Shown piece by piece: positions 15,941-19,447 of a DNA stretch of 64,000 nucleotides. The stretch is from Thiomicrorhabdus sp. 6S3-12 (GTDB taxonomy: Bacteria; Pseudomonadota; Gammaproteobacteria; Thiomicrospirales; Thiomicrospiraceae): positions 1-64,000 of the forward strand of contig NZ_JAGETW010000001.1 of assembly GCF_017571475.1 (NCBI RefSeq), read 5' to 3'. Both the position numbers and the translations under genes were made by a program. A model generated the notes under the pieces. The model did no database searches. It was not told where the DNA came from and was given only the letters and a program-made list of their open reading frames with translations. The first letter of the stretch is position 1. Each line of letters starts with the position of its first letter.

Positions 15941-16582
15941 ATGGACTTAATTGTCAAACAACTCGGCCAACAGGACTATCAAACTGCCTGGGAGGCGATG
16001 CAGACGTTTACCCGGCAGCGCGACGAAGACACCCCGGATGAATTGTGGATCGTAGAGCATCCTCCAGTTTACACTCAAGGCCTCAATGGCAAAGCCGAAC
16101 ACGTGCTACACCCGAACCCGGAAATCCCGATTGTGCAAACCGATCGCGGCGGTCAGATTACCTATCACGGCCCCGGACAACTGGTGATCTATATCCTTGT
16201 AGACCTCAAACGACGCAAACTCGGAGTGCGTGCGCTGGTCAGCATTATCGAAAATGCCATTATCGAACTGCTGGCAAGCTTTCATATCGATGCCGTCGCC
16301 CGTGCCGATGCACCCGGTGTCTATGTCAACGGGCAAAAGATTGCCTCTCTCGGTCTGAAAATCCGCAAACAGAAGAGTTATCACGGACTGGCGCTGAATG
16401 TCGATATGGATCTCGAGCCTTTTCAGGCCATCAATCCATGCGGTTTGCTCGGCATGCAAATGGCGCAACTCAGCGATTTCATCGCCGCCGAACAGCGCCC
16501 GCAAATCAGCGAGTTAGGTTCTCATCTGTGCCGTATTCTACAACAGCAACTGGATGCCGGCGCGCCCAGCAACGCTCAGTAA
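15941..16582 (+). CDS. lipB: lipoyl(octanoyl) transferase
   Basis: The 213-residue enzyme moves octanoyl groups from acyl carrier protein to lipoyl domains of 2-oxoacid dehydrogenases and GcvH. Seen are the substrate-binding [19 protein letters not shown], the lysine region [22 protein letters not shown], and [10 protein letters not shown] with the catalytic Cys. The gene is followed 74 bases later by lipA, so the two steps of lipoate formation are adjacent. The length is normal. Confidence 0.96.
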
Positions 16583-16656
16583 AACTGCGTGGATTTCTTA
16601 AAACTTTACGGATGGCTTATAATAGCTGCCTTTCTAGCGAACACGAGTGAAAACTT

Positions 16657-17685
16657 ATGTCTCAACCACCGCAGCGACAAGAGATTTCCATTGATCAAAT
16701 CGGCTCTCTAAAAGAGCGCAATGCCGCCATGCCCAAAGGACAGTACAAGACCAAATCGCTGAAGCACCGTCCGGACCCGAATGCGGAAAAGCTTAAAAAG
16801 CCGCGCTGGATCAAAGCCCAGCTTCCGAAAGCCAAAGACATTCACCGTATTCGCGAATTAAAAAACATCATGCGCGAGCAAGGCCTGCACAGTGTCTGTG
16901 AAGAAGCGTCGTGCCCGAATCTGGGCGAGTGTTTCGGACACGGCACCGCGACCTTTATGATTATGGGTGACATCTGTACCCGCAAATGCCCTTTCTGCGA
17001 TGTCACACATGGCCGTCCGAAAGCGCTTAATCAGGAAGAGCCGGCCCATCTGGCGCGCACCGTTAAAGCGATGGGCCTGAACTATATCGTTATTACTTCG
17101 GTTGACCGCGACGATCTGCGTGACGGCGGCGCGCAGCATTTTGTCGACTGTGTCCGTGAGCTCAGAGAACAGTCGCCAAACACCAAAATCGAAACACTGG
17201 TACCGGATTTCCGCGGCCGTCTCAGCGTGGCACTGGAAACTCTGTCCAAACAGCCGCCGGATGTTCTCAACCACAATCTGGAAACCATTCCTCGCCTATA
17301 CGAAGAGGCGCGTCCGGGTGCCGACTACCAGTCGTCACTGGACTTGCTCAAACGCTTCAAGGAAATGCATCCGGAAGTGAAAACCAAATCCGGTCTGATG
17401 GTCGGCCTGGGTGAAAGCATGGAAGAGCTGTTGCAGGTCATGCGTGATTTGCGCGCTCACAATGTTGAAATGCTGACCGTCGGCCAATATTTACAACCGA
17501 GCAGTTATCATCTGGCGGTCAAAAAATACTGGACGCCGCAAGAGTTCAAACAGGTTGAAGAAGCCGGCTACGAAATGGGCTTCGAGAACGTTGCTTCCGG
17601 CCCGATGGTCAGATCGTCCTACCACGCCGATCTGCAGGCCAAAAGCGATAACGGCAAACAAGATATTCAATTTAATGCGCTTTAA
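16657..17685 (+). CDS. lipA: lipoyl synthase
   Basis: The 342-residue radical-SAM enzyme inserts two sulfur atoms into protein-bound octanoyl groups. Both Fe-S clusters are evident. The auxiliary cluster uses [12 protein letters not shown] (Cys-x4-Cys-x5-Cys), and the radical-SAM cluster uses CTRKCPFC (CxxxCxxC). The C-terminal segment holds the RSSYHADLQ motif, whose Ser is an auxiliary-cluster ligand. The N-terminal extension of about 40 residues is somewhat long and basic. It lies between lipB and hslO, 15 bases before the latter. Confidence 0.97.
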
Positions 17686-17700
17686 TTTTGGAACAAAGTC

Positions 17701-18558
17701 ATGGCACAAGATGTAATTCAGCGTTTTCTATTTAAAGAACACAATATCCGCGGGCAGGTAATCCAGCTTGACGAAGCCTGGCAGAAAATGACCCGTGATC
17801 GCCATTATCCGGAGGTGATCAGCCGACTGTTGGGCGAACTGACCGCCGTCAGTGTCATTCTGGCCAGCGGCCTGAAACACAGCGGCAAGATCACCCTGCA
17901 GATTCAGGGCAAAGGCCCGGTCAATCTACTGGTGGTTGAAGTAACCCATGATTTCAAACTGCGCGGTGTGGCCAAGACCTCTCAGCCAATCGAGAATCAG
18001 AAAACAATGGATGAGCTTCTCGGTAACGGACAAATACTGGTCACATTGGAAAATACCCAGACCAACAGACACTTCCAGAGTTATGTCCCTCGCGAAGGGG
18101 ACACTGTAGCGCAATGTTTTGAGACCTTCTTCCAACAATCCGAACAGCTGCCTTCCAGATTGTGGCTGGCCGCTGACGAAAATCAGCTTGGAGGTCTGCT
18201 GCTGCAAAAGATGCCGGATACCGACAACAAGGATGCTGACGCATGGGATCGCGTCAGCCATCTGGCGGAAACGGTCAAGGATGACGAATTAATGCAATTA
18301 CCGAGTGAGGAATTGCTACATCGCTTGTTCCATGAAGAAACCGTCGAACTTTTCGAAGGCAATGCGGTTATTTATGAATGTCCGCAAGACAAATCGCGCG
18401 TCGATGACATGCTGCGTAAGCTCGGAGAAGATGAAGTTCGCGAAATGCTCGAAGAGCAGGGAGAGATCGTCATTCACAATGAGATCTGTAACTATCATAT
18501 CCGCTACAACGCCGACGATATCGACGCTCTGTTTGAAAAACAAGAAACACTGCAATAA
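17701..18558 (+). CDS. hslO: Hsp33-type redox chaperone, zinc site incomplete
   Basis: The 285-residue protein is HslO/Hsp33. The N-terminal domain has KITLQIQGKGPVNLLVVEV, the central linker has QLPSRLWLAADENQLGG, and the end holds the redox-switch region. In E. coli four Cys (232, 234, 265, 268) bind zinc as CxC and CxxC. Here they align to C227, Q229, N260 and C263, so two ligands are missing (YECPQD and HNEIC). The rest of the region, including LGEDEVREMLEEQGEI, is well preserved, so the gene is not simply decayed. Chaperone activity may be constitutive or triggered differently, for example by one disulfide between C227 and C263. A strong terminator follows. Confidence 0.93.
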   Translation: MAQDVIQRFLFKEHNIRGQVIQLDEAWQKMTRDRHYPEVISRLLGELTAVSVILASGLKHSGKITLQIQGKGPVNLLVVEVTHDFKLRGVAKTSQPIENQKTMDELLGNGQILVTLENTQTNRHFQSYVPREGDTVAQCFETFFQQSEQLPSRLWLAADENQLGGLLLQKMPDTDNKDADAWDRVSHLAETVKDDELMQLPSEELLHRLFHEETVELFEGNAVIYECPQDKSRVDDMLRKLGEDEVREMLEEQGEIVIHNEICNYHIRYNADDIDALFEKQETLQ

Positions 18559-18593
18559 CAGAACATGCCCTGAAACGATTCAGAGCAATGTAA

Positions 18594-18639
18594 ATAAAAA
18601 ACCGCCGCAGGATGGATTTTCCCGCGGCGGTTTTTTATT
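18594..18639. terminator. bidirectional terminator between hslO and yaaA
   Basis: ACCGCCGC and GCGGCGGT form an 8-bp stem with A-rich sequence before and TTTTTTATT after. It can therefore end both convergent transcripts. Confidence 0.9.
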
Positions 18640-18670
18640 ACCTGAACCAAGTCTCGGCAAAGCGGTGAAT

Positions 18671-19447
18671 TTACTCTTCCAGTTTACGCGTAAAGACCCA
18701 GTCGGTTTCATTCGACATTTCCGGCTCAAATCCATAGCCCTGATAATCGAAGTATTTCAGCCCTTCGGCTTCTTCCAGTTTGTGATCCGCTGCATAACGA
18801 GCCATCAGACCACGCGCTTTTTTCGCATGGAAACTGATAATCTTATATTTACCGCCTTTCCAATCCTTGAAAATCGGCGTAATGATCCGCCCGTTCAGCG
18901 CTTTTTTATCAATCGCTTTGAAATACTCGTTCGATGCCAGATTTACGATTGTTTTGCTGCCCTGCGCTTGCAGATCCCGGTTCAGAGACTCGCTTAATTT
19001 CGCCCCCCAGAACTGATACAGATCCTTGCCTTTATGGTTGGCGAACTTGGTGCCCATTTCCAGGCGGTATGGCAACATCAGATCACATGGTTTTAAGAGT
19101 CCGTAAAGCCCGGAAAGAATACGCAGATGCTTCTGCAGATAATCAATCGACTCCTGATCCAGACTGTACGCATCCAGCCCCTGATAAACATCCCCTTTGA
19201 ACAACCATGCAGACTGCTTTGCTCTGTCTTCGGCAAACGGGTAAGTCCACTCCTGAAATCGCTGGTAATTCAACTCGGAAAGTTTTTCACTGATGCTCAT
19301 CAGCTGGCCGATCTCCACCGGTCCAAGCTGCTGCAGCTGCTCAATCAGTTCCTTGGCTTCCTCAGCAAACTGAAACTGAGTCGCGGTCGCAGTCTGAACC
19401 GGCGTCTTTTCATCCAGCGACTTGGCTGGAGAAACAAGCATTAACAT
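18671..19447 (-). CDS. yaaA: peroxide stress protein YaaA
   Basis: The 258-residue protein belongs to the YaaA/DUF328 family, which limits free iron and DNA damage during hydrogen peroxide stress. Diagnostic segments are [10 protein letters not shown] at the start, [48 protein letters not shown] and [18 protein letters not shown] stands just before the ATG. It is a single gene converging on hslO with a shared terminator. The neighbouring redox chaperone may be only a chance association. Confidence 0.95.

What the first reader, a model, noticed from the sequence alone, without database searches (positions are those of the whole stretch)
18379..18489. Hsp33 with two of four zinc cysteines lost
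C227 and C263 remain, but the CxC and CxxC partners are Q229 and N260. The rest of the switch region is preserved, which argues for altered control, not decay. The zinc-thiol redox trigger cannot form in its known way.
Basis: partly seen in the sequence, partly recalled or inferred. Interest (0 to 1): 0.6.

Follow-up and report, generated by a model that had tools for sequence, protein, structure and literature searches.

The report
Two-cysteine Hsp33 subfamily without zinc site
The bacterium's oxidation-triggered chaperone Hsp33 lacks two of the four cysteines that normally hold zinc, and so do its relatives in at least six bacterial families; this is an inherited, well-conserved variant whose switch must be built differently from the textbook one.

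Summary
Window 17701-18558 (+) is an intact 285-aa Hsp33 (hslO). C227 and C263 are present. The CxC partner is Q229 (CAA) and the CxxC partner is N260 (AAT). It is the only Hsp33 in the genome. It is not a sequencing error or decay: of 62 genomes of the window's GTDB order that encode Hsp33, 61 were read as two-Cys (one has Ns at residue 260). The form recurs in f93 (probably Thioglobaceae), in ammonia oxidisers (probably Nitrosomonas) and in three more betaproteobacterial families. All two-Cys proteins form one clade (100/100, switch columns removed). C227 and C263 are invariant in 118 of 118; 38 of 116 full-length proteins have no other cysteine. Clade-specific changes accompany the loss: S230 to D/N/E, C260 to N/D, F262 to I/M/L/V, F225 to Y. 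Neither the Zn(Cys4) centre nor the two canonical neighbour disulfides can form. Best mechanism (inferred): a zinc-independent, thermally poised holdase in which the remaining thiols form one cross-knuckle C227-C263 redox pair. The papers I could read call the four cysteines highly or absolutely conserved; I found no description of this clade. Verdict: new variant of a known kind.

The parts
17701..18558 (+). hslO: complete two-cysteine Hsp33 (285 aa)
   Evidence: PF01430 E 2.5e-72; phmmer to E. coli 1i7f E 7e-56; only copy in the genome
18379..18381 (+). C227 codon (TGT), first Cys of the former CxC; kept
   Evidence: Cys in 118/118 two-Cys and 122/122 four-Cys proteins
18385..18387 (+). Q229 codon (CAA), where CxC has its second Cys; lost
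   Evidence: Q/E/K/R/D/G/H/A/N/Y in two-Cys proteins, Cys in 122/122 four-Cys
18388..18390 (+). D230 codon (GAC), accompanying substitution: S/T in 120 of 122 four-Cys proteins (N in 2), D/N/E in 118/118 two-Cys
18478..18480 (+). N260 codon (AAT), where CxxC has its first Cys; lost (N in the gamma families, D in the beta families)
18484..18486 (+). I262 codon, accompanying substitution: F/Y in 121 of 122 four-Cys proteins, I/M/L/V in 118/118 two-Cys
18487..18489 (+). C263 codon (TGT), last Cys of the former CxxC; kept
   Evidence: invariant
16657..17685 (+). lipA (lipoyl synthase), ends 15 bases before hslO; with lipB (15941-16582) conserved upstream neighbour in most Thiomicrorhabdus relatives examined
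18671..19447 (-). yaaA (peroxide stress protein family), convergent neighbour, often conserved nearby

Best explanation
This is a vertically maintained and horizontally spread subfamily of Hsp33 holdase chaperones whose redox-switch domain keeps its fold but has replaced the Zn(Cys4) core by a metal-independent packed core, with one thiol left on each of the two knuckles. SHOWN: the residue pattern, one monophyletic group, purifying selection, invariance of C227 and C263, co-substitution of 225, 230, 260 and 262, and a confident predicted fold. INFERRED: without zinc the domain is held by its hydrophobic core and an Asx/Glx hydrogen-bond network (D/N/E230, N/D260, E/D261). It is therefore less tightly latched and is triggered by heat or other unfolding stress. 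C227 and C263, neighbours in the folded state because both occupied the zinc site, act as one two-thiol redox pair: oxidation makes a single C227-C263 cross-knuckle disulfide instead of the two neighbour disulfides of E. coli. Whether that disulfide opens the linker (activating) or staples the domain shut (the opposite polarity) is open.
For: Single clade, 100/100 support, in trees with the switch columns removed. All 62 order members with the gene carry C227 and C263 and none has the other two; 61 read as two-Cys, L030 has Ns at 259-261. Four-Cys is the state of all other lineages read, 122 distinct proteins plus 8 alphaproteobacteria. C227/C263 invariant in 118/118; 38 of 116 full-length proteins contain no other cysteine, so any intramolecular disulfide there must be C227-C263. 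Fixed accompanying changes at 230, 260, 262. dN/dS 0.05 overall, 0.09 in the switch domain against L003. AlphaFold2 with a two-Cys-only alignment: pLDDT 84-92 across the switch domain to residue 280, same elements as the mixed run; the mixed-alignment model matches full-length closed B. subtilis Hsp33, TM 0.82. Precedent: algal Hsp33 lost one Cys and zinc binding and is more sensitive to mild heat or oxidation (PMC7423844); [quoted passage not shown]
Against: No zinc, thiol-state or chaperone data exist here. AlphaFold2 does not model metals or redox state, and I could not read side-chain distances from the model. A two-Cys plus Asp/Glu/His metal site is not excluded, above all in the beta branch with invariant D260. 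The hydrogen-bond-network idea rests on conservation only.
Confidence: 0.5

Rival explanations
1. A re-tooled metal site: C227 and C263 plus one or two oxygen or nitrogen ligands (D/E229-230, N/D260, E/D261, or H259/H266) still bind zinc or another metal, with weaker affinity and a lower oxidation threshold, so the protein works like canonical Hsp33 but with one disulfide.
For: The retained cysteines are the two that lay on opposite knuckles of the zinc site; acidic/amide residues are fixed at 230, 260 and 261, and D260 is invariant in 35 betaproteobacterial proteins. H259 (51 of 62) and H266 (53 of 62) are common in the window's order.
Against: No histidine is invariant (H259 is F/S/Y and H266 is Y/S/T in some order members; f158 has E266). 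Some two-Cys proteins have N230 with N260 and Q229, leaving no carboxylate except E261, which is ancestral. Asn is a rare zinc ligand (own knowledge).
Confidence: 0.25
2. The switch is dead as a redox device: the protein is a heat-activated or partly constitutive holdase, and C227/C263 are kept only as buried core residues.
For: Both canonical disulfides are impossible; linker destabilisation alone is sufficient to activate E. coli Hsp33 (PMC4735815).
Against: Strict invariance of both cysteines over 118 proteins, down to 36% identity to the window, while flanking positions such as 228 and 229 vary freely; a buried structural Cys usually tolerates Ala, Ser or Val (own knowledge).
Confidence: 0.2
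3. Sequencing error or a decaying gene in this genome, with an intact second hslO elsewhere.
For: None found for this genome. Decayed copies do exist in some reduced f93 genomes.
Against: Same residues in the other genomes of the order, one copy per genome with rare split or doubled hits elsewhere, open frame, strong purifying selection.
Confidence: 0.01

Closest known systems
Canonical Hsp33/HslO (E. coli, B. subtilis 1VZY, T. maritima 1VQ0; PF01430)
   Same: Full-length homology with N-terminal, linker and switch domains; predicted closed fold TM 0.82 to 1VZY; C232 and C268 equivalents kept
   Different: C234 and C265 equivalents replaced (Q229, N260); S/T230 to D, F262 to I; no Zn(Cys4), no neighbour disulfides possible; scores 232.8 bits against NCBIfam's HslO equivalog NF001033, below its 244-bit cut-off
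Algal Hsp33 of C. reinhardtii (as described in PMC7423844)
   Same: Natural loss of zinc-ligand cysteine with a retained chaperone
   Different: One cysteine lost and in eukaryotes; here two are lost, one from each motif, in a bacterial clade. The primary paper was not available to me
Rare bacterial Hsp33 lacking the second cysteine (fewer than 10 of 1579 in PMC7423844)
   Same: Loss of the CxC second position
   Different: Not described there as a clade, nor with loss of the CxxC first position or the accompanying changes

Membership tests
Hsp33/HslO (PF01430) | Full-length sequence homology over the curated cut-off | tested here: met
   243.5 bits against 21.4
Hsp33/HslO (PF01430) | Hsp33 fold with N-terminal core, linker and C-terminal switch domain | tested here: met
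   AlphaFold2 pLDDT 94.6; Foldseek top hits 3m7m, 1hw7, 1i7f, 1vzy, 1vq0
Hsp33/HslO (PF01430) | NCBIfam HslO equivalog NF001033 cut-off | tested here: not met
   232.8 bits, cut-off 244
Zinc-thiol redox-regulated Hsp33 | Four cysteines CxC and CxxC binding zinc | tested here: not met
   C227, Q229, N260, C263
Zinc-thiol redox-regulated Hsp33 | Two neighbour disulfides (232-234 and 265-268) on oxidation | tested here: not met
   Partner cysteines absent from the sequence
Zinc-thiol redox-regulated Hsp33 | Oxidation-dependent holdase activity and metal content | not testable with these tools
   Needs purified protein
Two-Cys Hsp33 subfamily (this work) | C227 and C263 kept, non-Cys at 229, N/D at 260, D/N/E at 230, aliphatic at 262, placed in the two-Cys clade | tested here: met

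The most novel reading that the evidence does not exclude
The two-Cys clade carries a zinc-free, single-disulfide switch whose polarity differs from E. coli Hsp33: the reduced protein is only thermally latched and heat-activated, and oxidation staples the two knuckles through C227-C263, tuning or reversing activation. This would be a natural reversal of a textbook redox switch within one chaperone family.
Probability: 0.2. Interest if true: 0.75.

Novelty: new variant of a known kind. Interest (0 to 1): 0.55.

Why it matters
Hsp33 is the textbook zinc-thiol redox switch, and its four cysteines are described as absolutely or highly conserved (PMC4735815, PMC7423844). A large natural clade that fixed the loss of one ligand from each motif, with matching changes around the site, is a ready experiment on what zinc and each disulfide contribute to activation. 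Reversion and transplant mutants between the two forms would directly separate thermal from oxidative triggering.

Tried and rejected
(1) Sequencing error, decay or second copy: rejected. (2) Independent losses in each lineage: rejected for the lineages sampled; one clade, 100/100, in 100% of 200 bootstrap trees checked, even with nine switch columns removed. (3) Link with lithoautotrophy: RuBisCO in 18 of 21 two-Cys against 25 of 34 four-Cys genomes, Fisher p 0.34, not supported. (5) First guess that family f158 was Psychrobacter: wrong; 16S nearest to Burkholderiales records and multi-copy amoA point to a betaproteobacterial ammonia oxidiser, probably Nitrosomonas. (6) The named genome-contig scan with the single protein gave only two loci, so most organism names are inferred. 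(7) Side-chain geometry from AlphaFold2 could not be read. (8) Two key papers were not held.

Full report
OBSERVATION. Window 17701-18558 (+) encodes a 285-aa protein without internal stops, matching PF01430 (HSP33) at 243.5 bits against a cut-off of 21.4 and E. coli Hsp33 along its length. In the switch domain it reads YE-C227-P-Q229-D230 ... IH-N260-E-I-C263-N. The alignment to 1i7f places C227 and C263 on the first Cys of CxC and the last Cys of CxxC (E. coli C232 and C268), and Q229 and N260 on the two missing ones. The coordinates 18379-18489 are exact. The genome has a single Hsp33.

EXTENT. All 63 genomes held of the window's GTDB family, which is also the whole order (7 genera), were searched; 62 encode an Hsp33, one copy each, with one gene hit in two pieces. 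The rest were fetched and aligned. All 62 carry C227 and C263 and none has the other two cysteines; 61 are counted as two-Cys, and L030 has Ns over residues 259-261. Position 260 is N in all 61; position 229 is variable (Q, K, E, D, R, G, H, A). A named relative at 79% is Thiomicrorhabdus marina, so the window is most likely a Thiomicrorhabdus.

f158 is betaproteobacterial by 16S, and members tested carry up to three amoA copies, so probably Nitrosomonas. A phylum and an order search added nine proteins from three further betaproteobacterial families f196, f197 and f273. The other proteins read, 122 distinct ones plus 8 alphaproteobacteria, have CCCC. One (L148) has a second Cys shifted by one residue.

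ONE CLADE. Maximum-likelihood trees put all two-Cys proteins on one side of a branch with 100/100 support, both when the four cysteine columns are removed and when nine switch columns are removed and the new beta families are added. The clade mixes two gamma orders with four beta families, while other beta and gamma families keep four cysteines, so horizontal transfer (or old duplication with differential loss) is needed. f93 falls inside the window's order with moderate support. The four-Cys state in alphaproteobacteria, B. subtilis and T. maritima makes four cysteines ancestral and the loss derived (T. maritima from own knowledge).

SELECTION AND CO-CHANGES. In 118 two-Cys proteins C227 and C263 are invariant; 38 of 116 full-length ones have no other cysteine at all (31 in the window's order, 7 in f93). 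With the cysteine loss came: position 230 S/T (120 of 122) to D/N/E (118/118); 260 C to N (gamma) or D (beta); 262 F/Y (121 of 122) to I/M/L/V (118/118); 225 F (118 of 122) to Y (110 of 118). E/D261 and N264 are older features. dN/dS against the 94% relative is 0.05 overall and 0.09 in the switch domain; synonymous sites are saturated against several of the more distant relatives tried.

STRUCTURE. AlphaFold2 gives mean pLDDT 94.6 with a mixed alignment and 91.4 with a two-Cys-only alignment, with the switch-domain blocks up to residue 280 at 84-92 in the latter. Foldseek (mixed-alignment model) matches closed full-length B. subtilis Hsp33 (TM 0.82) and T. maritima Hsp33 (0.78). So the fold is expected to survive without the four-cysteine site; AlphaFold2 cannot tell whether metal is bound.

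MECHANISM. In E. coli the four thiolates bind zinc; oxidation makes two disulfides, releases zinc, and the linker unfolds to expose the client site (PMC4735815; PMC7423844). Here neither disulfide can form. The two thiols left come from opposite knuckles and would sit next to each other in the folded domain (inference from tetrahedral zinc geometry, own knowledge). The simplest reading is a metal-free core with one cross-knuckle redox pair and a looser, more heat-sensitive latch. [quoted passage not shown] A mixed Cys2/carboxylate metal site remains possible, above all with D260 in the beta branch, but proteins combining Q229, N230 and N260 and the lack of an invariant histidine weigh against it.

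CONTEXT. hslO lies 15 bases after lipA in a lipB-lipA-hslO order, with the peroxide-stress gene yaaA convergent. This neighbourhood recurs in much of the genus but not in f93 or the beta genomes. An association with RuBisCO was tested and not supported.

NOVELTY. The papers I could read describe the four cysteines as absolutely or highly conserved, with fewer than 10 of 1579 lacking the second. A search for Hsp33 with these genera found nothing relevant. I therefore rate this a new variant of a known kind; absence from an open-access library is not proof that it is undescribed.

Noticed in passing
L209, L210 and matches in G536, G537, G539, G540, G541: hslO is broken (several stops or fragments) in five f93 genomes of 1.2-1.5 Mb (one genus) and absent from several others of the family, fitting decay in reduced, probably symbiont, genomes.
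   Followed up: no
L148 (G157): A gammaproteobacterial Hsp33 whose second cysteine is shifted by one residue (CVGC instead of CxC), still four cysteines in all.
   Followed up: no
window 15941-19447: lipB-lipA-hslO with convergent yaaA is a recurring neighbourhood in Thiomicrorhabdus relatives.
   Followed up: partly
G490:C67 and G490:C8: One f158 genome (3% contamination) shows two full-length two-Cys Hsp33 genes (the second not read residue by residue).
   Followed up: no
window 17701-18558: NCBI's HslO equivalog model NF001033 scores this protein below its cut-off (232.8 against 244 bits), so automatic naming may miss or mislabel the subfamily.
   Followed up: no
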